NCBI GenBank assembly: GCA_030613505.1
Contig: JAUWLW010000042.1
Location: 1 to 22,790, forward strand
DNA: 22,790 nt
Direction: 5' to 3'
DNA from: Candidatus Zixiibacteriota bacterium
GTDB lineage: Bacteria > RBG-13-66-14 > B26-G2 > WVWN01
The notes below the pieces were generated by a model. The model saw only the letters and a list, made by a program, of their open reading frames with translations. It searched no databases and had not been told where the DNA came from. The position numbers and the translations under genes were made by a program. Below are positions 2,287-11,637 of the stretch, piece by piece; position 1 is the stretch's first letter; the number at the start of each line of letters is the position of its first letter.

Positions 2287-2315
2287 ATTTTACCACGGCC
2301 TCGTACTCTCCGCAA
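2287..2315 (-). promoter_or_regulatory. Promoter of the C25-like peptidase gene, apparently leaderless
   Basis: On the minus strand a TTGCGG box (2310-2315) is followed after 17 bp by TAAAAT (2287-2292). The expected transcription start, about seven bases further on, falls at or next to the GTG start codon at 2280. No Shine-Dalgarno sequence precedes the GTG. The same TTGCGG box with a 17-bp spacer occurs upstream of mreB in this window. Confidence 0.55.
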
Positions 2316-2340
2316 CAAACGCCGGTACTTTGAAGGCTTT

Positions 2341-2370
2341 AACGTTGAAACGGAAAACGTTGACACGTAA
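2341..2370 (+). repeat. Tandem 15-bp direct repeat at the R-M promoter (possible operator)
   Basis: Two adjacent 15-mers, AACGTTGAAACGGAA (2341-2355) and AACGTTGACACGTAA (2356-2370), agree at 13 of 15 positions. The second copy contains the -35 hexamer of the methyltransferase promoter. The placement would suit a repressor or activator site. No controller (C) protein gene is visible beside the operon, so the binding factor is unknown. Confidence 0.45.
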
Positions 2371-2388
2371 AACCGGCGATGGTATATT
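2360..2388 (+). promoter_or_regulatory. Promoter of the restriction-modification operon
   Basis: A consensus TTGACA (2360-2365), 17-bp spacer and TATATT (2383-2388) predict a start near 2395 and a leader of about 32 nt before the methyltransferase ATG. The -35 box is embedded in the second unit of a tandem repeat. Confidence 0.75.
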
Positions 2389-2426
2389 TGGTTTGGTGGA
2401 GCATAGTATCCACGTGCTAAAGAATA

Positions 2427-3377
2427 ATGACCCAAAAAACCTCAGCCAAGCCGGTAACATTTGAAGACCTCGACGCCTTTTTGGAAAAAAACGATTGCGT
2501 CGTTATCGAAGACAAAAAAATCAAATTGGACGGCGCCCGCCGTAAGAAAAAATTACAACCCGAGGAATTCAAGTTAGAAACGTCAACGGTCTGGAGCTTC
2601 CCTAAAAGAGGTAATTGGGCGACCCATAAGGCGAATTTCCGCGGCAACTGGGCCCCTCAAATCGCCCGTAACATCATCGAACGCTACAGCGAACCCGGCG
2701 ATACCGTTTTGGATATGATGGTGGGGGGAGGTACTACGCTTGTCGAATGCGTGCTTACGGGGCGAAAAGGCGTAGGCGTGGACATAAACAAGGACGCCCT
2801 GATGGTAACGCTCGATCGCCTCAAGTTTATGCGGGATTCGGATGACGAACAAATCCGCGATATCCAAATCGATATTTACAAGGGTGACGCGCGGGACCTG
2901 AATTTCGTCGGAGACGAAGCGATAGACTTGATAGCGACCCACCCTCCGTACGCCAACATAATTAAATATTCAAAAAATAACGCGCCCGAAAACGCCGGCG
3001 ATCTATCTAAACTGAACAAAATCGAAACCTTCGTCGAACAAATAGGTGGCGTCGCCGACGAGGCGTACCGGGTCTTAAAACCCGGGAAATACTGCGCAAT
3101 TCTAATCGGCGATACGCGGATAAATAAGCACTACGTACCTATCGCCTACCGCGTCATGGGCCAATTCCTAAAAACCGGTTTTATCCTCAAAGAAGATATT
3201 ATTAAAGCGCAATGGAACACCCAAACCGAAACGTTGTGGTCCAAACTATCCGCCAAGTACAACTTTTTACTAATATTACACGAACACCTGTTTATATTCA
3301 GGAAACCCGAGGCGGGGGAAAAATTAAAAAAATACAAATATAGTATGCTTAACGCCGAAGGGGAGCAGGGCGAATAA
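2427..3377 (+). CDS. Type II N4/N6 DNA methyltransferase
   Basis: A 316-residue SAM-dependent DNA amino-methyltransferase of the N6_N4_Mtase kind. In order: an FRGNWAPQIARNIIERYS segment (about 71-88, motif X-like), SAM-binding motif I DMMVGGGTTLVE (96-107), VGVDINKDAL (117-125, motif II) and the catalytic THPPY (171-175, motif IV). This is followed by a C-terminal half rich in hydrophobic strands, including RVLKPGKYCAILIGDTR. Motif X and I preceding IV argues against the beta class. The product should methylate adenine N6 or cytosine N4 and protect DNA from its partner. The stop overlaps the next start (TAATG), implying translational coupling to the PD-(D/E)XK protein. The Shine-Dalgarno is weak (AAAG). 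The gene is visibly AT-richer than the flanking housekeeping genes, consistent with horizontal acquisition. The recognition sequence cannot be predicted. Confidence 0.88.
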   Translation: MTQKTSAKPVTFEDLDAFLEKNDCVVIEDKKIKLDGARRKKKLQPEEFKLETSTVWSFPKRGNWATHKANFRGNWAPQIARNIIERYSEPGDTVLDMMVGGGTTLVECVLTGRKGVGVDINKDALMVTLDRLKFMRDSDDEQIRDIQIDIYKGDARDLNFVGDEAIDLIATHPPYANIIKYSKNNAPENAGDLSKLNKIETFVEQIGGVADEAYRVLKPGKYCAILIGDTRINKHYVPIAYRVMGQFLKTGFILKEDIIKAQWNTQTETLWSKLSAKYNFLLILHEHLFIFRKPEAGEKLKKYKYSMLNAEGEQGE

Positions 3378-3829
3378 TGAAAGCTAACGAATACCGGGAC
3401 GCTACAGCTAAATATTTAGCCCGGCGTTACGCGGAAGACGGCCTTGAAGTTTTTACCGAAGTCGGATTAGGCACGTCCATCGTTGGGAAGAAGAGGAAGC
3501 TAGACGTATTAATCCTCGATAATAATACCGGGAAATCTTTCGGGTTGGAGTGTAAAGTGCAAATGGTGAGCGGTACCGCGGAGGAGAAATTATACTTCGC
3601 TTTGGAAGACATTAAAGCTATGCCGATACCGGGGGCCGTAGTATACTACGGCGGCGGTTTCACCGAGGCCTTTCTACACATGCTGGCCGCTTCCCCGTAC
3701 GCGGTATATTGTAAGCCGCCGGGTTGCGGCGAAGGAAACTCGGAAACCGACGAGTTGGATACGCTACTCGACATCCACTTCGGCCTGTTGCGCCGGCGGG
3801 TATCGGACGATAGGAAAATAACGCCTTAA
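3377..3829 (+). CDS. PD-(D/E)XK endonuclease, restriction partner of the methyltransferase
   Basis: A small 150-residue protein with a readable PD-(D/E)XK core: KLDVLIL places Asp43 on the first strand, and GLECKVQ places Glu58 and Lys60 (ECK) after a 14-residue connection; Glu28 could be the helix glutamate. SGTAEEKL (65-72) directly after the ECK strand is a feature I associate with single-domain nucleases of this superfamily. Its start overlaps the methyltransferase stop by one base, the usual type II R-M layout, so it is most likely the cognate restriction enzyme cleaving unmethylated sites. No separate DNA-recognition domain is visible, so specificity must reside in the compact fold or in a dimer. 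It could instead be a nicking or repair nuclease (for example Vsr- or HJC-like), but the operon makes restriction the best reading. The specific subfamily is not assigned. Confidence 0.8.
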   Translation: MKANEYRDATAKYLARRYAEDGLEVFTEVGLGTSIVGKKRKLDVLILDNNTGKSFGLECKVQMVSGTAEEKLYFALEDIKAMPIPGAVVYYGGGFTEAFLHMLAASPYAVYCKPPGCGEGNSETDELDTLLDIHFGLLRRRVSDDRKITP

Positions 3830-3846
3830 AGTTTTTTACACTGTAC

Positions 3847-3920
3847 GGGCGATTAGCTCAGTTGGCTAGAGCGCCTGCCTTACAAGCAGGAGGTCGGAGG
3901 TTCAAGTCCCCCATCGCCCA
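3847..3920 (+). tRNA. tRNA-Val (anticodon TAC)
   Basis: A full cloverleaf can be drawn: acceptor GGGCGAT/ATCGCCC (7 bp), D-arm GCTC/GAGC, anticodon stem CCTGC/GCAGG with loop CTTACAA (anticodon TAC, reading GTN valine codons), variable AGGTC, and T-loop TTCAAGT. The discriminator is A and no CCA is encoded. One oddity: the T-stem GGAGG/CCCCC carries an A-C mismatch in its middle pair (3898/3910). It lies 17 bp after the restriction gene with no clear promoter of its own, so it may be read from the R-M operon. Its 3' 44 nt are duplicated at 6951-6994. Confidence 0.95.
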
Positions 3921-3930
3921 AAATAATCAA

Positions 3931-3954
3931 GGGCCCGCGAGGGCCCTTTTTTAT
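3931..3954 (+). terminator. Intrinsic terminator after tRNA-Val
   Basis: GGGCCC-GCGA-GGGCCC followed by TTTTTTATT. The complementary strand also ends in a T-rich run, so it may serve the convergent NHL gene too. Confidence 0.88.
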
Positions 3955-3964
3955 TACAGGATAT

Positions 3965-3986
3965 TTTCTGCCATATTTCTGCCATA
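3965..3986 (+). repeat. Perfect tandem 11-bp repeat beside the tRNA (possible integrase arm-type sites)
   Basis: TTTCTGCCATA occurs twice head to tail, 44 bp downstream of the tRNA-Val 3' end and just past the NHL gene stop. Short direct repeats close to a tRNA 3' end are where tyrosine-integrase arm-binding sites usually lie. No integrase gene is present, so this is only suggestive. Confidence 0.4.
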
Positions 3987-3993
3987 AATCTCC

Positions 3994-4920
3994 CTACCTA
4001 AAAAGCGCCTTAACCTTCCCGAGCGATTCGGGGAAAACGGCGTCCCCTATCCAGCGGAAGTATTGGATGCGGTTGTTATAACAGTCGCTGACGTACGCGC
4101 GGGCACCCGTCGGCGAGATACCGACATCAACAGGCAGGTTGAACCCCGAACGCCACATACCGAGGAAGGAACCCGTGGCGGTGAAGTATTGGACGCGGTA
4201 ATTCTGGGTATCGACCACGTTAACGTTGCCGTTCGGCCGGAAAGCTATCCCATGAGGGTCGTAGAATTGGCCGGCACCGGCCCCACGTGAGCCCCACTTG
4301 CCGAGGAAGGACCCAGCGCCGGAGAAGTATTGTATACGGTAGTTATGAGTATCAGCTACATAAACGTTGCCGTTAGGCGCAACGCCTAAATCACGGGGAT
4401 AATCGAATTGGCCGTCGCCCGTTCCGGTCGTACCCCACTTGCCGCGGAAGGAACCCGTCGAGGTGAAGTATTGAACGCGGTCGTTAAGGGAGTCGGCGAC
4501 GTAAACGCGGCCGCGCCGCGCGACGGCTACGCCGCCAGGATAATTAAACTCGCCGTCCCCGGAGCCGAGCTTGCCCCACTTGCCAAGGAAGGAGCCGCTC
4601 GAGGTAAAGTATTGGATGCGGTTGTTATTTTGGTCGGCGACATAAATGTTTCCGTTCGGCCCAACGGTTACGCCCCTCGGACGAAAGAACTGGCTGTTAC
4701 CCGTGCCTAAAGAACCCCACTTACCGAGGGAGGAACCCGTGGCGGTGAAGTATTGGACGCGGTGGTTTTCTGAATCGACGACGTAAACGTTACCGTTCGG
4801 CGTAACGGCTACGCCTCTCGGATAATGGAGTCCGCCGTACCACATGCCTTCGTACACCCAGCTGCCGCAGGCCGCGGCGGCGACCGCCGTAACCGCTACG
4901 ATAACTAAAACCCTTTTCAT
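3994..4920 (-). CDS. NHL-repeat beta-propeller lipoprotein
   Basis: A 308-residue exported protein. The ATG at 4920 was chosen because an ideal AGGAGGT lies eight bases upstream; an upstream in-frame ATG lacks this. The N-terminus MKRVLVIVAVTAVAAAAC reads as a lipoprotein signal with a lipobox-like AAAC. The rest is six NHL repeats of about 47 residues (PRGVAVTPNGNVYVVDSENHRVQYF, then ATGS..GKWG..G.G..QF, and variants), enough to close one six-bladed propeller. NHL propellers bind proteins, RNA or ligands as scaffolds; this one should face the periplasm or outside, and its partner is unknown. The fifth blade has NVNVVD for the usual NVYVAD. The DNA repeat period of about 141 bp follows from the blades. 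The gene stands alone between two GGGCCC-type terminators and has a long structured leader. Confidence 0.88.
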   Translation of the reverse strand: MKRVLVIVAVTAVAAAACGSWVYEGMWYGGLHYPRGVAVTPNGNVYVVDSENHRVQYFTATGSSLGKWGSLGTGNSQFFRPRGVTVGPNGNIYVADQNNNRIQYFTSSGSFLGKWGKLGSGDGEFNYPGGVAVARRGRVYVADSLNDRVQYFTSTGSFRGKWGTTGTGDGQFDYPRDLGVAPNGNVYVADTHNYRIQYFSGAGSFLGKWGSRGAGAGQFYDPHGIAFRPNGNVNVVDTQNYRVQYFTATGSFLGMWRSGFNLPVDVGISPTGARAYVSDCYNNRIQYFRWIGDAVFPESLGKVKALFR

Positions 4921-4980
4921 CGTTCGACCTCCTGCTTTATAAGGAGCGCTCTCCAAAGAGCCGCGTTAGGTTAAGACTAA

Positions 4981-5132
4981 ATAGAAAACCCAGGCCGGCC
5001 TTTAGCCGAACCTGGGTAGTATTTCGTAACGCGCGGCGCGCGAGGCGCCGTGCCATACCAAACTTATTTCTCCCGACCCAGGCATACCTCACCCCTAGAA
5101 ATTATTCCGCCCGGTTACGTATACCTTCTCCC
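4981..5132 (-). promoter_or_regulatory. Candidate structured leader RNA (attenuator or riboswitch-like) upstream of the NHL gene
   Basis: Read on the minus strand, the leader can form a closing stem, GUAUACGUAAC (5114-5124) with GUUACGAAAUAC (5019-5030), around two inner stems: AUUUCU/AGAAAU (5097-5102/5066-5071) and CGGCGC/GCGCCG (5045-5050/5034-5039). Directly after it comes a terminator-like hairpin, ACCCAGG (5011-5017) with CCUGGGU (4988-4994), reinforced by CGGC/GCCG inside and followed by UUUCUAU. A second CCUGGGU (5076-5082), inside the multibranched part, could pair with the same ACCCAGG. Mutually exclusive helices of this kind are how attenuating riboswitches work. It matches no riboswitch class I can recall, and no ligand can be named. 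The 60 nt before the ATG hold another small hairpin (GCUCU/AGAGC). Confidence 0.45.
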
Positions 5133-5549: not shown

Positions 5550-6929
5550 ATGAAAGCCACGTCCACCAACCCCCGCGTCCTTCTATGCACCTCGTACCGA
5601 CGCTCCCGCGGCGACTACCTGGACTTCCTGGGGGGCGCCACGCGGGGCCTCCCCAAGTTGAGCTCGCCGTGCCGGCTCAGCCCGGGCCTGCGCTTCATCA
5701 AACAAAACGTCCCCGAGGTCGAGATACTCGAGTATCCGCTGTGGCACGAGTACGTCGCGAAGCTGAAAGAAGGCTGGGATATTGTCGGCTTCAGCGCCTA
5801 CCAACGCGACATCGCCGAAATAGAGAGTATGGCCGAGGAGGCGCGGCGGCAAGGCGTGGACGAAACGTGGGCCGGCAACTTCGGCGTGCTGGACGACAAG
5901 GTCCCGAGTATGGTGGACCGGACATTCGTCGGCCCCGCGGAGGACTCCATCGCGCGGTTTTTCGGCCACAGCGTCCCCGACGAAGACATCGAACATCCGG
6001 CGATGATGGTGCACGTATCGCTGCGCCCCGGGAACATACGGCACTTTTCCGCGGGTTTGCTTTACACCCAGCGCGGCTGCCCGTACAAGTGTACCTTCTG
6101 CCAGACGCCGGCGTTCGACAAGCGGCGCTTCTCGATCAACTACGAAAGCATCGAGCGCGTCCTGCGTTATTACCGAAAGATCGGCATTAAATATATCTTC
6201 GTCATGGATGAAATCTTCGGCGCGGATAAGCGGTTCACCGACAGCGTGACCCAACTCCTCAGCCGTTATAACTTCCACTGGCTGGCCCAATCCCGCGCGT
6301 CGCTCTTCCTGCACAACCTCGACGAATGGTACGAACGCGGCCTGCGCATTACGCTCGTCGGCGTAGAGTCCATGTCCCAAAAGGCCCTCGAGTCGATCAA
6401 TAAAAAGCAAAGCGTCGAAGAGGTTGCGGCGTTCGCGCGGCGCACCGCGGAAAAGCCGGGCATGTTCCGCTTCGCCTACTACCTCATTGGTTACGAGGGC
6501 ATGAACGCGGAGGAGACGCTCCGCGACGCGCAGCTCCTCAATGAATTAGGTTTCGACTCGAGCGGCGTGTGCGTCCTCACCCCCTACCCGCAGACGCCGT
6601 TGTGGGACCGATTGGAGGCCGAATACGGCACCTTCGACCCGACGTACGCCCATTATAATTCGAAGCACCTGGTATGGAACAACCCCCACATCTCGGCCGC
6701 GGAGATGCAAACCCTTTTGACTTCCGTAGTAAACCTGCTCAACAACCGCGCCGCCATCTACGCCAAGATATTCACTCGGCTCCTGTGGCCCGGCCTTAGT
6801 CTGTCGAAACCCGCCCTCCTCTGGCGTAACCTGGTCAAGGTCCCGGTCTCGAGTTACTTCATAAACGACCGTAAGCAGTTCTTCTTTCCCAAGCTCGGCG
6901 CCGACCGCCCCGGGTCGGTTTCGCCCTGA
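5550..6929 (+). CDS. Radical SAM protein with degenerate B12-binding-like N-terminal domain
   Basis: A 459-residue protein. Residues about 8-150 look like the Rossmann-type domain found ahead of radical SAM cores in the B12-binding subfamily (VLLCTS strand, GWDIVGFSAYQRDIAEIE, VDRTFVGPAEDSI), but the cobalamin DxHxxG signature is absent. The radical SAM cluster motif is RGCPYKCTFCQ with Cys177, Cys181 and Cys184, followed by a TIM-barrel-like region (YIFVMDEIFG, ITLVGVESMS, FAYYLIGYEGM). The C-terminus (about 370-459) has no known domain. It should bind a 4Fe-4S cluster and cleave SAM to a 5'-deoxyadenosyl radical in the cytoplasm; the substrate is unknown. Relatives act in methylthiolation, ring formation and lipid or cofactor modification. 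AAGGA eight bases upstream supports the start. It is a single-gene unit, and a tRNA fragment and terminator follow it. Confidence 0.85.
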   Translation: MKATSTNPRVLLCTSYRRSRGDYLDFLGGATRGLPKLSSPCRLSPGLRFIKQNVPEVEILEYPLWHEYVAKLKEGWDIVGFSAYQRDIAEIESMAEEARRQGVDETWAGNFGVLDDKVPSMVDRTFVGPAEDSIARFFGHSVPDEDIEHPAMMVHVSLRPGNIRHFSAGLLYTQRGCPYKCTFCQTPAFDKRRFSINYESIERVLRYYRKIGIKYIFVMDEIFGADKRFTDSVTQLLSRYNFHWLAQSRASLFLHNLDEWYERGLRITLVGVESMSQKALESINKKQSVEEVAAFARRTAEKPGMFRFAYYLIGYEGMNAEETLRDAQLLNELGFDSSGVCVLTPYPQTPLWDRLEAEYGTFDPTYAHYNSKHLVWNNPHISAAEMQTLLTSVVNLLNNRAAIYAKIFTRLLWPGLSLSKPALLWRNLVKVPVSSYFINDRKQFFFPKLGADRPGSVSP

Positions 6930-6950
6930 GGAGGCCGCGGCGGATGAACC

Positions 6951-6994
6951 GCCTTACAACCGGGAGGTCGTAGGCCCGAGTCCCCCATCGCCCA
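6951..6994 (+). pseudogene. Duplicated 3' fragment of tRNA-Val (att-like remnant)
   Basis: This 44-nt segment aligns without gaps to the last 44 nt of the tRNA-Val gene (3877-3920), with 38 of 44 identical. It includes the anticodon loop CTTACAA, AGGTCG and the exact 16-nt end AGTCCCCCATCGCCCA. The 5' half of a tRNA is absent: no GGGCGAT acceptor strand or D-arm precedes it, since the radical SAM stop codon lies only 21 bp upstream. The T-stem is further degraded (GTAGG/CCCCC). A same-orientation partial tRNA 3' end is the usual scar of integration into a tRNA gene; a decayed tandem tRNA copy is the alternative. Confidence 0.8.
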
Positions 6995-6999
6995 TAAGA

Positions 7000-7024
7000 C
7001 CCCGCCACGCGGCGGGGTTTTTTT
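7000..7024 (+). terminator. Intrinsic terminator after the radical SAM gene and tRNA fragment
   Basis: CCCCGCC-ACGC-GGCGGGG followed by seven T. It lies six bases beyond the tRNA fragment and ends the upstream radical SAM transcript. Confidence 0.9.
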
Positions 7025-7043
7025 AGAGGCGTTTCGATACCCT

Positions 7044-7073
7044 TTGACCGGCCGCCGCCCTTTATGCTATCCT
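7044..7073 (+). promoter_or_regulatory. Promoter of the M48-like membrane protein, near-leaderless
   Basis: TTGACC (7044-7049), 18-bp spacer, TATCCT (7068-7073). The expected start near 7080 is two bases before the ATG at 7082, and no Shine-Dalgarno exists. An in-frame ATG at 7064 lies within the spacer just before the -10 box and is therefore unlikely to be the start. Confidence 0.55.
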
Positions 7074-7081
7074 TCGTGACA

Positions 7082-8311
7082 ATGACCCGGCTAGCTATCA
7101 TCGCCGCTTTTCTGGCCGTTTCGCTTATCGCCGTTTTCGCGCAAGGCGAGGGGGCCGAAACGGTCCCTATGGGCCAGCGGGGCCTCATCTACGAGCTCGG
7201 CCCCAAGTTGCCCGAGCCGGAAAAAGAGGCCCTCACGGACCCGCGCTTCGCCGCGGCCGGCCGCTACACGACGGCGCGCCAAATCTCGGCCGTAGCTGCG
7301 GCGCTGTTGATAATCGCCGTGCTCGCGGCGTTGCACTTCTCGGGGGCGGGCGGCCGCCTGGCCCGGCTGGGCCGGGGGCGCACCTTCGCCACTACGTTAA
7401 TCATGGCCGGCGTGGTAGGGGCGGCGGTGGCGGTCCCGCTCTTACTGGTGGCCGCCGTACGGGGCGGCTTTTTGCGCGCCGCGGGCGGCGAGCCCTCGGC
7501 CGCCGTCATCCTAATCAAGCCGCTTTGCTACGGCGTGGCGGCGGGAGCCTTCGCGCTGACCGTCGGCGCCGCCCGGGCCATATGGTCGCGGACGTGGTGG
7601 ATCGCGGCGACCTTCGCGGTTGTCGTGGCGGCGGTATTTTGGGCGTTCCTTCTCCCGCTCCCGCCCGCGGCCGAGCCGTCGTCCCCCACGGGCGGTTTTC
7701 TGCTCGAGCGGGTCCAGTACCTGTCGGCGCAATACCAGATGCCGCCGTACAAGGTCGCCGTCGAGCGGCGCCCCCCCGCAGATGAGATTATAGCCGCGGC
7801 GTCGCCCCCCGCGCGCCGCGTCGTCGTCGTGTCCGCCGGCGCGGAGTCGCGCGGCCGGTACGAGGCCGAGGTCTTCCTGGCGGCCGCGGTCACCCGGGCG
7901 GAGGCGACGCGAAACAGCTTCCTCGGCGCCGCGGCGCTGATCTTTTTCATGGCGTCGCTCATAGCCGCGGACGCCTTCGGCCGCGCGCTGACCCGTCGCC
8001 TGGGGGGCGATGCCGACCCGCCCGCCGGCCTTTTACCGTTCGCGGCGGTCCTCGTCGCGTTGTGGGCGGCGGCCCTCGTTTTATGCAACGTATGGAACCG
8101 GCACCTTTGGCTCGAGGCGGACGAAGAGGTCGTTCGGCTCACGCGGAAGCCCATCGCCGCGGTAACGCTTTACTACGAGGAGGCGCGCGCCAACCTTGCC
8201 GCCGCGGAACCGAACCCGGTACTCCACTTCCTGGTCGACGCGAAACCGTCGCCCGCGGAGCGCGCCGCCCGGGCCCGCCGCCTGCGCCGCGAGCTGGCGG
8301 GAATAAACTAA
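7082..8311 (+). CDS. Multi-spanning membrane protein, apparent inactive Ste24/M48 protease homologue
   Basis: 409 residues from the ATG that fits the promoter. Hydrophobic spans lie at about 3-20, 65-82, 105-125, 145-165, 175-195, 275-295 and 320-340. The order of features resembles Ste24-type CAAX proteases: a soluble LLERVQYLSAQYQMPPYKVAVE segment before the RRVVVVS strand, then a helix where HExxH should be, then EADEEVVRLT (Glu345, Asp347, like the third-ligand ExxAD region), then NPVLHFLVDAKPSPAERAARAR (like the HFLFYSHP..ERI end of M48). The helix reads VFLAAAVTRAEATRN, so the zinc motif HELGH is replaced by AAVTR (268-272) and catalysis should be lost. Possible roles are a membrane scaffold, or sequestering of substrates of an active paralogue, as pseudoproteases do. 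The homology is my motif-level judgement. If wrong, it is simply a polytopic membrane protein of unknown function. Confidence 0.72.
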   Translation: MTRLAIIAAFLAVSLIAVFAQGEGAETVPMGQRGLIYELGPKLPEPEKEALTDPRFAAAGRYTTARQISAVAAALLIIAVLAALHFSGAGGRLARLGRGRTFATTLIMAGVVGAAVAVPLLLVAAVRGGFLRAAGGEPSAAVILIKPLCYGVAAGAFALTVGAARAIWSRTWWIAATFAVVVAAVFWAFLLPLPPAAEPSSPTGGFLLERVQYLSAQYQMPPYKVAVERRPPADEIIAAASPPARRVVVVSAGAESRGRYEAEVFLAAAVTRAEATRNSFLGAAALIFFMASLIAADAFGRALTRRLGGDADPPAGLLPFAAVLVALWAAALVLCNVWNRHLWLEADEEVVRLTRKPIAAVTLYYEEARANLAAAEPNPVLHFLVDAKPSPAERAARARRLRRELAGIN

Positions 8312-8354
8312 GCGCTTTTAACTAATTCGCCGGGGTATATCGGTAAGAAAGATA

Positions 8355-8383
8355 TTGTGATTTTATTAAGCCTATATTATAAA
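8355..8383 (+). promoter_or_regulatory. Promoter of the dCTP deaminase / GNAT-ASCH operon
   Basis: TTGTGA (8355-8360), 17-bp spacer, TATAAA (8378-8383), then a strong GGGAGGT Shine-Dalgarno (8393-8399) four bases before the ATG. The whole 8330-10640 segment is AT-richer than its neighbours. Confidence 0.7.
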
Positions 8384-8403
8384 GGGATAACCGGGAGGTA
8401 AAT

Positions 8404-9579
8404 ATGGTTAACAACTACGGGTTTAGGCCGGGCATACTGAATAGGGACCAATTAATAAAGCTAGGCGAAGAAGGGCGAATCCACGACCTAACTGAAGCTG
8501 ACGTCGGGGAATCTTCATTTGACCTACATTTAAGTCGTAACTTTTGGGAAATGGAAGGATGCGTTAAACCGTTTACGGAGAATAAAAGCATCATAAACGA
8601 AATTTGCAATAAATTCGGGACCCCAAAAAAAGCGAGTGATGAAGAAGTTTTACATAAAGGCAAAACCTATATATTTAAAATTAAGGAGTCGATTAATTTC
8701 TACGATACGTACTTTTCGGCAAAAGCGACGGGAAAAAGTACCATAGGCAGGTTAGACGTCCTCACTAGGGTCATACCGAAAGCCCACCACGAATACGATA
8801 CAATTAAAAGTAAAAGCTCAAGTGATATATTCTTAGAAATAACGCCACTTACTTTCCCGATAATTGTAAAAGAAGGTACGGCCATGAGCCAATTGAGGGT
8901 CTCATGTTGCGATTTCGATATTAATGAAATGAACGGGGTTGAAGAGTGTACTTTTTTATCGGAGAATAACTACGTTTTAGAATCGGACGGGTCCGGCGTA
9001 AAACTCGAAAAGTTGTCCACCTTATCAGTTAATCTTAAGTCCGACCCAACATTACCGGGGAATACTGTAGGATTTAGGGCATTACCGCAAGAAAACGGGA
9101 GCGATAGGCCACCTATAGATTTAACCAAAGATTATAGGCCGGGGGACGATACAAATAAATATGACCCAAAAAAGTATTGGGAACCGATCGAAGCGCAGAA
9201 TAAGGAAGGGGAAAAATTTATTGCTATCGAACAAGAAAAATTTTATATTCTCCGGTCCAAGGAACGCTTCTCCCTACCTCCTGACGTTGCAGTTTATTGT
9301 AGGGCAATAACAGAGGAACTTGGAGAAATACGAATCCATTACGCAGGTTTCGTACATCCCTACTTCGGTGCCGGGAATATAGACGTTAACGGGAAACCGA
9401 GAGGGACACCCCTTATATTCGAAGTACGCTCACATAACGTTGACGCTTTACTTCGCCATGGCGATACGCTCGCCAATATCCGTTATTACCGGATGTCGAA
9501 GGAAAATGAAGAAGATAGTAAGGACTACGGTAAACAAGAATTAAAACTCTCTAAAGTCTTTAAGGATTGGCCGGAATGA
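8404..9579 (+). CDS. dcd: Two-domain 2'-deoxycytidine 5'-triphosphate deaminase
   Basis: A 391-residue protein of the fused DCD type (PF06559 by motif recognition), a little longer than the roughly 360-residue bacterial relatives. Domain one carries SSFDLHLS (37-44), the nucleotide-binding SAKATGKSTIGRLDVLTRVI (105-124; Ser112 and Arg116 match the E. coli Dcd Ser/Arg pair) and the catalytic strand FLEITP with Glu145. Domain two carries ELGEIRIHYAGFVHPYFG and EVRSHNVDALLRHGDTLANIRYYRM, the repeated dUTPase-like half. It should convert dCTP to dUTP plus ammonia in the cytoplasm. As housekeeping it would feed dTTP synthesis; dCTP deaminases are also known anti-phage effectors that drain dCTP. 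The TGA overlaps the ATG of the GNAT-ASCH gene (ATGA), so the two are coupled. Lower GC than surrounding genes and a private promoter and terminator point to acquisition as a module. Confidence 0.85.
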   Translation: MVNNYGFRPGILNRDQLIKLGEEGRIHDLTEADVGESSFDLHLSRNFWEMEGCVKPFTENKSIINEICNKFGTPKKASDEEVLHKGKTYIFKIKESINFYDTYFSAKATGKSTIGRLDVLTRVIPKAHHEYDTIKSKSSSDIFLEITPLTFPIIVKEGTAMSQLRVSCCDFDINEMNGVEECTFLSENNYVLESDGSGVKLEKLSTLSVNLKSDPTLPGNTVGFRALPQENGSDRPPIDLTKDYRPGDDTNKYDPKKYWEPIEAQNKEGEKFIAIEQEKFYILRSKERFSLPPDVAVYCRAITEELGEIRIHYAGFVHPYFGAGNIDVNGKPRGTPLIFEVRSHNVDALLRHGDTLANIRYYRMSKENEEDSKDYGKQELKLSKVFKDWPE

Positions 9580-10619
9580 AAAACGAAGAAGGCAAATTGG
9601 ATTTCCGGCGTAAAGTAACGGTGGCACGATTTGGGGCCTCCGATATCGACCCGGACCTCGAACAATTAAAAGAATTCAAAAACATAATCGAAGAGTGTGA
9701 CGACAATTACCCGGGCATAGACCTATGGTTCGAGAAAAAGGTAAAACCGGGATTGCGTGAGAAAGAGCGGGGCGGGGTTCTCATCTATCACGAGGGTAGC
9801 GCCGTAGGGGCTTCGGTGGTAAGGAAGGGCGAGGACGGTAAATTATGCAGCCTTCGTATAAAACCAAAATATCAGAAAAAAGGAATTGGTAAGTTGTTAA
9901 TGGCGTTATCCGTCCTCGAGTTTAAAAAATCGGAAATAATCCACTTCAGCGTACCGGCCAGCATATGGGGTTCGGAAAAGGCCTTTTTAGAGAGATACGG
10001 GTTTACCTTCGCAGGTAAATTTAAAATTCAATATCGCCGCGGGGACGACGAGTTATTCTGTACGGGTAGTTACGGGAATGCTTTACAACGCGTTTTGTTA
10101 GATATACCATTATTATTCGCTGAATTTTCTATTAACAAAAATACGGAAGCGGCGGAGCTTATCCTCAGTATTAAACCTAATTTCGTTACGAAAATAATAA
10201 CTGGCGAAAAAAAGATCGAGTTGAGAAGGCGTTTTAGTAATAAATGGGAAGGCGCCATAGCTATACTATATGCGACCCATCCCTACCACGAGTTCGTCGG
10301 GGAAGTTAAAATCGAAAAAGTTATAACGGGAAAGCCGATAGATATCTGGTACGAGTTCGGCACCGAACTAGGCTGCGATAGGAATACTTTCTTCTCGTAT
10401 TGTGATGGTTTAGAAGCGATAAACGCTTTAATGTTATCGGATGTTAAACGGTTCGAAATGCCCCTTCATATTAGCTCGGTCAATAGGATTATCCGGACCG
10501 CCTATAAAGACTTTAAAGAAATCACTCCGCCCCAATCCCACTCTCGCGTCGGCAACGAATTACTACACCCTTTAGCCATTCTACATTCTAGTTTATTTAA
10601 TTTCGAACGTCCGCCTTAA
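9576..10619 (+). CDS. GNAT acetyltransferase fused to an ASCH domain
   Basis: 347 residues, translationally coupled to the dCTP deaminase. An ATG at 9576 is preferred over an upstream TTG because it forms the ATGA overlap. Residues about 14-175 are a GNAT fold: VLIYHEGSAVGASVV, then the acetyl-CoA loop LRIKPKYQKKGIGKLLM (93-109, Q/RxxGxG type) and FLERYGFTFAGKF. Residues about 193-300 are an ASCH (PUA-like) domain: ELILSIKPNFVTKIITGEKKIELRRRF (194-220) has the GxKxxExR signature, followed by ILYATHPYHEFVGEVKIEKV. ASCH domains bind RNA or nucleosides, and the E. coli family member YqfB hydrolyses N4-acetylcytidine. An acetyltransferase and an ASCH domain in one chain, beside a cytosine-nucleotide deaminase, suggests action on cytosine nucleotides or on an RNA. 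That is inference; GNAT substrates here could equally be protein or tRNA. Confidence 0.78.
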   Translation: MKNEEGKLDFRRKVTVARFGASDIDPDLEQLKEFKNIIEECDDNYPGIDLWFEKKVKPGLREKERGGVLIYHEGSAVGASVVRKGEDGKLCSLRIKPKYQKKGIGKLLMALSVLEFKKSEIIHFSVPASIWGSEKAFLERYGFTFAGKFKIQYRRGDDELFCTGSYGNALQRVLLDIPLLFAEFSINKNTEAAELILSIKPNFVTKIITGEKKIELRRRFSNKWEGAIAILYATHPYHEFVGEVKIEKVITGKPIDIWYEFGTELGCDRNTFFSYCDGLEAINALMLSDVKRFEMPLHISSVNRIIRTAYKDFKEITPPQSHSRVGNELLHPLAILHSSLFNFERPP

Positions 10620-10649
10620 TGTTCTTCAATTGAAAAGCTAAAAAAATAA

Positions 10650-10673
10650 CCGCCTCTAAAGGCGGCTTTTTTA
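10650..10673 (+). terminator. Bidirectional terminator between convergent operons
   Basis: CCGCCT-CTAA-AGGCGG followed by CTTTTTTATT on the plus strand and by an equally T-rich run on the minus strand. It closes both the GNAT-ASCH operon and the minus-strand operon that ends with the propeller lipoprotein. Confidence 0.9.
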
Positions 10674-10689
10674 TTCGGCATAATTGTTC

Positions 10690-11637
10690 TCAGTCGTAAT
10701 ACCTGCTGACGCCGCTGTCGAGCGTCCCGAGCCAAACGTACCCCAGCTTATCGCCGAAGACGCAAAGGACGTAGTCGGATAACAGGCCGCGGGTCGTACC
10801 GAAGGTCTCGAAGCCCGGGCCGACGCTCCGCGAAGCGCCGCCGCCCGCCGTCGCGACCCACAGCTCGCCGTCGGCGCCGTAGCCGAGGTCGTTTATAATG
10901 TCGGCCCGCAACGCCGAGTTCGCGCTGGTGTACGTCTTGACGACTTTCCCTTTCCTGAGGAGGGCGAGGCCCCGGTCGGTGCCGACCCAGGCGTCGTCGC
11001 CCCGGGCGGCCACGGCGTAGACGACGTCCGACGGCAGGCCGGCGCCGATCGCGGTGTACTCCGTTATCTTACCGCGGTCGTAGAACGCGGCGCCGCCGAA
11101 GCAGGCTACCCATAACCGGTCCACGCCCACGGCGCACACGTCGCGCACGTCGTCGCCCGGCAGGCCCGAAGTGCAGTCGATGACGGTAAAGCCGGGGTCG
11201 TCGAAGCGGGCCAGGCCGCGGTTGGTAGCGAACCACACTTTCTCGCCGTCGAACGCGACGTCGTAGAGCCAATTGGACGGCAAGCCGTCGCCGGTGGTGA
11301 ATTTCTTAATCTCCTCGCCGCGGAGCCGGGCCGCACCCAGGAACGTAGCGACCCACACGTCGTCGTTCGGACATACCGCGAGGCCGAAAATTTCGTTCGC
11401 CGGCATCCCTCCCCAATAATCGTATACCACCCAATCCGAGCCGCGGTTGAACGCGAGGCCGCCGTCGGTGGCGAACCACGTCCCATCCGGACCCGCGTAT
11501 ATGTCGTAGACCTTGTTGCCGGGGAGGCCGCTGCCCTCGGCCGTTATGTAGAACCACTCCGGCCCCTCCACCGGCTCGTCCTCGCACGCGAACGCCAACA
11601 ACGCCGCGCATATTATGATAATGACCGACCGCCACAT
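10690..11637 (-). CDS. Two-component-regulator-propeller (Reg_prop) lipoprotein
   Basis: 315 residues. MWRSVIIIICAALLAFAC is a lipoprotein signal with lipobox FAC (Cys18). The mature part is about seven repeats of the Reg_prop type, each with a GLPSN- or GLPGD-like turn, a VYDIYAGPDGTWFATDGGLAFNRG-like strand pair and a threonine- or tyrosine-containing linker, so it should fold as one seven-bladed propeller. In hybrid histidine kinases such propellers form the periplasmic sensor. Here the propeller stands alone on a lipid anchor, without kinase or membrane-signalling domain. It is the last gene of the minus-strand operon, eight bases or fewer after ridA. A surface or periplasmic binding role is likely; the ligand is unknown. 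Confidence 0.82.
   Translation of the reverse strand: MWRSVIIIICAALLAFACEDEPVEGPEWFYITAEGSGLPGNKVYDIYAGPDGTWFATDGGLAFNRGSDWVVYDYWGGMPANEIFGLAVCPNDDVWVATFLGAARLRGEEIKKFTTGDGLPSNWLYDVAFDGEKVWFATNRGLARFDDPGFTVIDCTSGLPGDDVRDVCAVGVDRLWVACFGGAAFYDRGKITEYTAIGAGLPSDVVYAVAARGDDAWVGTDRGLALLRKGKVVKTYTSANSALRADIINDLGYGADGELWVATAGGGASRSVGPGFETFGTTRGLLSDYVLCVFGDKLGYVWLGTLDSGVSRYYD

What the first reader, a model, noticed from the sequence alone, without database searches (positions are those of the whole stretch)
8404..10619. Compact dCTP deaminase plus GNAT-ASCH operon: candidate nucleotide-based defence or cytosine-metabolism system
Seen: two genes coupled by ATGA, with their own promoter, strong ribosome site and terminator, in a segment AT-richer than its flanks. 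Gene one is a fused dCTP deaminase with Ser112, Arg116 and Glu145 intact. Gene two fuses a GNAT domain (QKKGIG loop) to an ASCH domain (GEKKIELRR). Known: dCTP deaminases act as anti-phage effectors by draining dCTP, and the ASCH protein YqfB hydrolyses N4-acetylcytidine. Inference: all three domains could act on cytosine nucleotides. The GNAT-ASCH protein may sense, modify or switch on the deaminase, or be a second effector. I know of no described system with this pairing.
Basis: partly seen in the sequence, partly recalled or inferred. Interest (0 to 1): 0.78.

Follow-up and report, generated by a model that had tools for sequence, protein, structure and literature searches.

The report
Mobile dCTP-deaminase / GNAT-ASCH gene pair
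A small transferable two-gene cassette, found in bacteria of three different phyla, joins a complete dCTP-destroying enzyme to a two-domain controller protein related to a candidate phage-defence and toxin-antitoxin family, so it is probably an undescribed cell-protection module that could be tested directly in the laboratory.

Summary
Genes 8404-9579 (fused DCD-family dCTP deaminase, K111/S112/R116/E145 intact) and 9576-10619 (GNAT fused to ASCH) overlap by ATGA and sit in an AT-rich 2.4-kb cassette (8299-10688). Two sister species lack it between the same two genes.

The pair is not unique to this genome. It recurs in the same order in two Zixibacteria genomes and one Spartobacteria MAG. In 533 genomes of three phyla, this DCD occurs in exactly four, each time directly before the GNAT-ASCH gene. 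The four DCDs form their own clade (100/100) apart from alphaproteobacterial housekeeping enzymes. The host has a separate ordinary dcd.

Known anti-phage dCTP deaminases (AvcD) are zinc enzymes of an unrelated fold, and the ASCH is not YqfB-like. It belongs with PADLOC candidate PDC-M11B, the GevA antitoxin of GNAT-EVE/ASCH systems.

Most likely: a mobile module in which the DCD is the effector and GNAT-ASCH its sensor or antitoxin-like controller. In a Bacillales relative, fused GNAT-ASCH follows a membrane protein instead, which suggests partner exchange. Anti-phage activity is inferred, not shown. Verdict: a new variant of a known kind, worth testing.

The parts
8299..10688 (.). accessory cassette: about 2.4 kb present here, replaced by about 54 bp between the same two genes in sister genome G004 and by a similarly short gap in G005
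   Evidence: GC drop
8394..8398 (+). ribosome-binding site GGAGG of gene 1
   Evidence: sequence
8404..9579 (+). gene 1: fused two-domain DCD-family dCTP deaminase (391 aa), predicted effector
   Evidence: Pfam DCD_N, DCD, DCD_C; PDB 2r9q over nearly the full length, E 9e-33; K111, S112, R116, E145 invariant
8440..8901 (+). N-terminal DCD domain with KST-IGRLD motif (K111, S112, R116) and E145
9001..9561 (+). C-terminal DCD_C domain (HYAGF, FEVRSH motifs)
9576..9579 (+). ATGA stop/start overlap of the two genes
   Evidence: sequence; the same 4-base overlap occurs in L045 (7983-7986)
9576..10619 (+). gene 2: GNAT-ASCH fusion (347 aa), predicted sensor/controller
9708..10070 (+). GNAT domain, acetyl-CoA loop Q100-K-K-G-I-G105; related to a small stand-alone GNAT that neighbours GNAT-EVE/ASCH systems
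10155..10538 (+). ASCH domain of the PDC-M11B / GevA type; Y232 and PPQS (318-321) correspond to ZmASCH Tyr47 and Ser128
10650..10665 (+). intrinsic-terminator hairpin with T run after gene 2 (possibly ancestral to the site)
2301..3844 (+). neighbouring accessory cassette: DNA methyltransferase (2427-3377) plus PD-(D/E)XK nuclease (3377-3829), absent in G004; not part of the pair but evidence on the neighbourhood

Best explanation
It is a horizontally transferred two-gene module. Gene 1 encodes a catalytically complete, zinc-independent DCD-fold enzyme that turns dCTP into dUTP and ammonia. Gene 2 encodes its controller: an ASCH domain of the GevA/PDC-M11B type that binds a nucleotide or nucleic-acid signal, fused to a GNAT domain. 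I propose that GNAT-ASCH holds the deaminase in check or switches it on when a signal appears, most likely phage infection. dCTP would then be drained and dUTP raised, and phage DNA synthesis would stall. SHOWN: the two proteins, the intact DCD residues, recurrence of the pair in three phyla, a DCD clade of its own, empty sites in sister species, and the kinship of the ASCH with an antitoxin or candidate-defence family. INFERRED: effector and controller roles, the trigger, activity on dCTP, and the anti-phage outcome.
For: Pair recurrence: L044 Zixibacteria (DCD 2905-4068, GNAT-ASCH 4102-5091), L045 Spartobacteria (6727-7986 and 7983-9077, ATGA overlap), G504, a genome of the Zixibacteria phylum (L219 328-1467 and 1477-2499). 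In 533 genomes of three phyla this DCD occurs in 4 and full-length GNAT-ASCH in the same 4, plus one contig-end fragment in G506; hypergeometric p 1.5e-9, not corrected for phylogeny. Specificity: among 160 ASCH-bearing loci from two scans only 2 have a DCD nearby, and these are two of the three that carry a fused GNAT-ASCH. DCD clade 100/100 against alphaproteobacterial and viral-contig DCDs; the two Zixibacteria copies (48.8%) are no closer to each other than the window copy is to G504 (48.6%), as expected of transfer. DCD active-site residues invariant in all four. A separate ordinary dcd exists in G000, and in G014 a further match well over the DCD-family cut-off. ASCH kinship with GevA and PDC-M11B; its binding-cleft residues Tyr and PPQS are invariant in the four. 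Mobility: empty sites and a large serine recombinase next to the L045 pair. Partner exchange: in L046 a predicted membrane protein replaces the DCD directly upstream of a fused GNAT-ASCH, beside PDC-S42.
Against: Only four complete instances, from MAGs or unnamed assemblies. None of the four lies inside a clear known defence island; the L044 pair stands between housekeeping genes and the G504 pair near radical-SAM genes. The nearest defence-like neighbour of the window copy is a methyltransferase/nuclease pair 4.6 kb away. The DCDs match no defence model searched. The GNAT loop is altered (QxxNxG) in two of four members, so its catalytic role is uncertain. No complex was modelled, and the DCD model was poor (pLDDT 45).
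Confidence: 0.5

Rival explanations
1. The GNAT domain is the toxin (for example acetylating charged tRNA) and the fused ASCH its built-in restraint, as GevA is annotated for GevT; the deaminase is an accessory or a trigger.
For: GNAT toxins are known and GNAT-EVE/ASCH operons are proposed toxin-antitoxin systems (PMC7641849); phage PhiR47_2 annotates GevT toxin and GevA antitoxin; the ASCH is GevA-like; the GNAT loop is canonical in the window copy and in G504.
Against: The GNAT here is a different, smaller family than the GNAT of GevT (weak similarity, E 0.006). Its loop is altered in L044 and L045, and L045 fails Pfam GNAT altogether, whereas the DCD residues never change.
Confidence: 0.17
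2. A nucleotide-pool or niche-metabolism operon: extra dCTP deaminase for dTTP supply, with GNAT-ASCH modifying or regulating it. No immunity role.
For: DCD is normally a dTTP-supply enzyme (PMC12088426, PMC10733785). Genome G015 shows no other DCD-family hit, so there it could serve metabolism.
Against: G000 carries an ordinary dcd above the family cut-off and G014 a separate strong DCD-family match. Sporadic presence (4 of 533 genomes), empty sites and a clade of its own. No thymidylate or salvage gene nearby.
Confidence: 0.14
3. A mobile-element maintenance or counter-defence module that serves the carrying element rather than the host.
For: The L045 pair borders a serine recombinase and an AAA_25 gene. 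Relatives of the ASCH with GNAT-EVE are common on prophages. Jumbo phages carry related small GNATs.
Against: Three of the four copies show no integrase or element genes beside them (window). No relative of gene 1 was found in phage records.
Confidence: 0.12
4. A cytosine-modification or repair pathway in which GNAT makes and ASCH reads or removes N4-acetylcytosine, and DCD clears the pool.
For: Some ASCH/EVE proteins are predicted readers of modified bases (PMC7641849); E. coli YqfB is an ASCH-family N4-acetylcytidine hydrolase (general knowledge).
Against: None of the gene-2 family matches the YqfB model although the control does. A mycobacterial Dcd:dut does not act on 5-methyl- or 5-hydroxymethyl-dCTP (PMC10742078).
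Confidence: 0.07

Closest known systems
GNAT-EVE + ASCH operons (GevT/GevA of phage PhiR47_2; PADLOC candidate PDC-M11A/B; (PIN)-GNAT-EVE of PMC7641849)
   Same: The ASCH domain of gene 2 is homologous to GevA/PDC-M11B. Two-gene, tightly coupled, mobile.
   Different: No EVE domain and no PDC-M11A protein. The GNAT is another family and is fused to the ASCH. A dCTP deaminase takes the partner place.
Alphaproteobacterial fused dCTP deaminase (NCBIfam PRK07559, PDB 2r9q)
   Same: Same two-domain DCD_N/DCD_C architecture and active-site residues.
   Different: About 30% identity, scores below the PRK07559 cut-off (194, 202, 177 and 252 against 283 bits), separate clade, accessory distribution.
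AvcID and other anti-phage dCTP/dCMP deaminases
   Same: Proposed outcome is the same: dCTP drained in phage infection (PMC10511110).
   Different: AvcD is a deoxycytidylate deaminase, a zinc-dependent fold unrelated to DCD (PMC12088426), under an RNA antitoxin; no PADLOC match for gene 1.
ZmASCH (PDB 5guq), single-strand-specific ribonuclease
   Same: Same fold; Tyr47 and Ser128 equivalents kept.
   Different: The ZmASCH structure has no GNAT domain. Lys53 is His in the window copy, Arg or Lys in the other three.
Small GNAT + membrane protein beside GNAT-EVE/ASCH/AAA_17 genes (L007, L036, L037, L039, L068 and others)
   Same: GNAT domain of gene 2 belongs with this small GNAT. L046 has the same GNAT-ASCH fusion.
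   Different: Partner is a membrane protein, not a deaminase, and GNAT and ASCH are mostly separate genes.

Membership tests
DCD-fold dCTP deaminase | DCD_N and DCD_C domains over the whole protein | tested here: met
   E 8e-27 and 9e-31, 2r9q residues 28-387
DCD-fold dCTP deaminase | Active-site Ser, Arg and Glu of the trimeric DCDs | tested here: met
   S112, R116, E145 invariant
DCD-fold dCTP deaminase | dCTP deaminase activity | not testable with these tools
   needs purified protein
PRK07559 equivalog (alphaproteobacterial dCTP deaminase) | Score above the curated cut-off of 283 bits | tested here: not met
   193.8 bits; homologues 202, 177, 252
Known anti-phage dCTP deaminases (AvcD type) | Match to a defence-deaminase model / zinc deaminase domain | tested here: not met
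   no PADLOC model for any operon DCD tested; Pfam gives DCD only
PDC-M11 / GevTA (GNAT-EVE + ASCH) | ASCH partner of the PDC-M11B family | tested here: met
   6e-25, 6e-31, 2.5e-28, 5e-27 in the four members
PDC-M11 / GevTA (GNAT-EVE + ASCH) | GNAT-EVE protein (PDC-M11A) encoded with it | tested here: not met
   only a weak GNAT-only match inside gene 2 (E 4e-4); no GNAT-EVE hit in L044 or L045
YqfB N4-acetylcytidine amidohydrolase | Match to NF003443 | tested here: not met
   YqfB control 177 bits; no gene-2 family member hits it
GNAT acetyltransferase | Acetyl-CoA loop (Q/R)xxGx(G/A) | tested here: inconclusive
   QKKGIG in the window and QAKGIG in G504, but QGNNLG and QETNLG in L044 and L045
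Anti-phage defence system | Sporadic, mobile distribution | tested here: met
   4 of 533 genomes, empty sites
Anti-phage defence system | Residence in defence islands | tested here: inconclusive
   methyltransferase/nuclease cassette 4.6 kb away in the window; no known system seen beside the other three
Anti-phage defence system | Protection against phage | not testable with these tools
   needs plating assays

The most novel reading that the evidence does not exclude
An undescribed immune module that uses the ordinary zinc-independent DCD/dUTPase-fold dCTP deaminase as an inducible effector, governed by a GNAT-ASCH controller derived from the GevA/PDC-M11 world. The controller can be re-paired with other effectors, such as the membrane protein in L046, making it an exchangeable sensor unit.
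Probability: 0.4. Interest if true: 0.82.

Novelty: new variant of a known kind. Interest (0 to 1): 0.64.

Why it matters
Nucleotide-draining immunity is known with zinc-type deaminases. This pair would show that the unrelated housekeeping DCD fold was recruited for it independently. It would also give a function to ASCH and GNAT domains that recur in candidate defence loci (PDC-M11) without a known mechanism. The module is only two genes (2.2 kb), so it can be cloned and tested in a standard E. coli strain.

Tried and rejected
Single-protein scans found nothing: P0002 in genome contigs and viral contigs, P0001 in viral contigs. The chosen peptide patterns were too specific. An alignment of P0002 with GNAT+ASCH chimeras solved this. 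Alignments of the operon DCDs or GNAT-ASCH found nothing in viral contigs. No DCD relative in phage records; plasmid DCDs are alphaproteobacterial, about 30% identical and without GNAT-ASCH in the flanks examined. YqfB membership rejected. AvcD-type membership rejected (PMC12088426). The DCD structure model was too poor to use. No co-folding tool was available, so a complex was not tested. A GevA/GevT paper was not found in the library, nor a text naming PDC-M11; Iyer 2013 on ASCH/GNAT systems is not held.

Full report
WHAT IS THERE. The window holds two genes in one cassette. Gene 1 (8404-9579, 391 aa) starts five bases after a GGAGG site and is a two-domain DCD-family protein: Pfam DCD_N, DCD and DCD_C. 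Its best solved relative is 2r9q, an annotated 2'-deoxycytidine 5'-triphosphate deaminase, aligned over residues 28-387. K111, S112, R116 and E145 are invariant against six alphaproteobacterial enzymes. Gene 2 (9576-10619, 347 aa) begins inside the end of gene 1 (ATGA) and carries a GNAT domain with the loop QKKGIG followed by an ASCH domain. The ASCH is just under Pfam's cut-off, but PADLOC PDC-M11B (6e-25), PHROG 3136 (2e-26), PDB 5guq (1e-10) and a Foldseek search of a model with mean pLDDT 72 all agree. The segment is AT-rich. A T-run hairpin follows at 10650-10665; no sigma-70 consensus promoter was found upstream.

IT IS A MOBILE UNIT. In sister genomes G004 and G005 the upstream gene (7064-8311) and the downstream gene (10690-11637) are direct neighbours. 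In G004, window positions 8299-10688 correspond to about 54 bp. None of the other 13 genomes of the phylum has either gene as a full-length relative at the thresholds used. The genome has its own ordinary dcd on contig C60, 128 bits against a cut-off of 93, and a further DCD/dUTPase-like gene on C7. So gene 1 is an extra enzyme.

THE PAIR RECURS. A scan of genome contigs with an alignment of P0002 and four GNAT+ASCH chimeras gave two fused GNAT-ASCH proteins far above the rest: L044 (Zixibacteria MAG, 36%) and L045 (Spartobacteria MAG, 34%). Both have a fused DCD directly upstream in the same orientation; in L045 the genes again overlap by ATGA. A profile search of 132 genomes of the Zixibacteria phylum gave a third pair, G504, and a contig-end GNAT-ASCH fragment in G506. 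Searching the same genomes and 387 genomes of the phylum of L045 with the DCD profile returned only the members already known. Over 533 genomes of three phyla the DCD is present in four and the full GNAT-ASCH in the same four; hypergeometric p 1.5e-9 (relatedness is not corrected for). As a control, of 160 ASCH-bearing loci fetched from genome and viral collections only L044 and L045 have a DCD, while 139 have a GNAT-EVE gene. The ten other fused DCDs examined, from plasmids and viral contigs, have no GNAT or ASCH hit in the flanks held. The four operon DCDs form a clade with 100/100 support. The two Zixibacteria copies are as far apart (48.8%) as the window and G504 copies (48.6%), which fits transfer rather than descent. 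Neighbours differ in every genome: RarA/MgsA (L044), a large serine recombinase (L045), radical-SAM genes (G504).

WHAT THE ASCH AND GNAT BELONG TO. The phage hit with named genes, Escherichia phage PhiR47_2, calls its two proteins GevT toxin and GevA antitoxin. GevT is PDC-M11A (2e-133) and GevA is PDC-M11B (7e-52). These are the GNAT-EVE/ASCH operons that a census paper proposed as toxin-antitoxin systems and found near restriction systems and in prophages (PMC7641849). The ASCH of gene 2 is homologous to GevA (29% identity) and to the Pseudomonas plasmid ASCH (35%). It keeps the Tyr and the PPQS motif that correspond to Tyr47 and Ser128, cleft residues that contribute to nucleic-acid binding or cleavage in ZmASCH (PMC5615036). 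The GNAT of gene 2 is not the GNAT of GevT but a small stand-alone family. In Pseudomonas, Nitrosophilus, Methylobacterium, Paenibacillus, Morganella, Erwinia, Methylophilus and a viral contig this small GNAT lies near the GNAT-EVE and ASCH genes and each time beside a related membrane protein. In a Bacillales MAG (L046) the same kind of GNAT-ASCH fusion as in the window follows such a membrane protein directly, next to PADLOC candidate PDC-S42. So the gene upstream of a fused GNAT-ASCH is either a deaminase or a membrane protein.

MECHANISM. The DCD residues never vary, whereas the GNAT loop does (QxxGxG or RxxGxG in the window, G504 and L046; QxxNxG in L044 and L045). The ASCH cleft is conserved. 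I read this as deaminase = effector and GNAT-ASCH = controller, with ASCH sensing a nucleotide or nucleic-acid ligand. Activation would drain dCTP and raise dUTP. Draining dCTP is a demonstrated anti-phage outcome for AvcD (PMC10511110), but AvcD is a deoxycytidylate deaminase, and zinc-dependent deoxycytidylate deaminases are unrelated to the DCD fold (PMC12088426). The claim here is therefore 'works like', not 'is a'. Phage defence as the biological role is an inference from mobility, from the kinship of the controller and from the exchange of the upstream partner.

NEIGHBOURHOOD. The window shows a second accessory cassette 4.6 kb upstream of gene 1: a DNA methyltransferase with a PD-(D/E)XK nuclease (2427-3829), absent in G004. 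It abuts a tRNA-Val gene (3847-3920). A 44-bp copy of the tRNA 3' half (86%) at 6951-6994 flanks a further 3-kb insertion. This is a place where foreign genes accumulate, which supports but does not prove a defence role.

LIMITS. The DCD model was poor and was not used.

Noticed in passing
window 2301-3844: DNA methyltransferase (2427-3377) and PD-(D/E)XK nuclease (3377-3829), overlapping by one base, form a likely restriction-modification cassette absent from sister genome G004.
   Followed up: partly
window 3847-3920 and 6951-6994: A tRNA-Val gene and a 44-bp, 86% identical copy of its 3' half flank a 3-kb segment (NHL-repeat protein, radical-SAM protein) missing in G004: an attachment-site-like trace of integration.
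   Followed up: partly
L007, L036, L037, L039, L054, L068, L075, L190: A recurrent module across several phyla: AAA_17-type ATPase, GNAT-EVE (PDC-M11A), ASCH (PDC-M11B), a small GNAT and a membrane protein of about 330-440 aa with hydrophobic C-terminal segments that has no Pfam or PADLOC match in the copies tested. PADLOC models cover only two of the five genes.
   Followed up: partly
L046 308-3372: Bacillales MAG: PADLOC candidate PDC-S42, a membrane protein and a fused GNAT-ASCH are adjacent, suggesting one operon.
   Followed up: partly
L041 4001-4384, L042 3944-4390, L043 3944-4387: Jumbo phages of Burkholderia, Pseudomonas and Erwinia carry the same small GNAT family; in Erwinia phage AH06 it lies next to a Lar-like restriction-alleviation gene, so it could be a counter-defence protein.
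   Followed up: no
L026 1962-7056 and L027 1912-6948: Two Bosea plasmids carry a fused dCTP deaminase between a site-specific DNA methyltransferase and thioredoxin-domain plus AAA ATPase genes: another accessory setting for this enzyme.
   Followed up: no
L009 1438-3322: A genome of the window's own phylum (G008) has a PIN-GNAT-EVE protein with an ASCH gene, the classical form of the related system.
   Followed up: no
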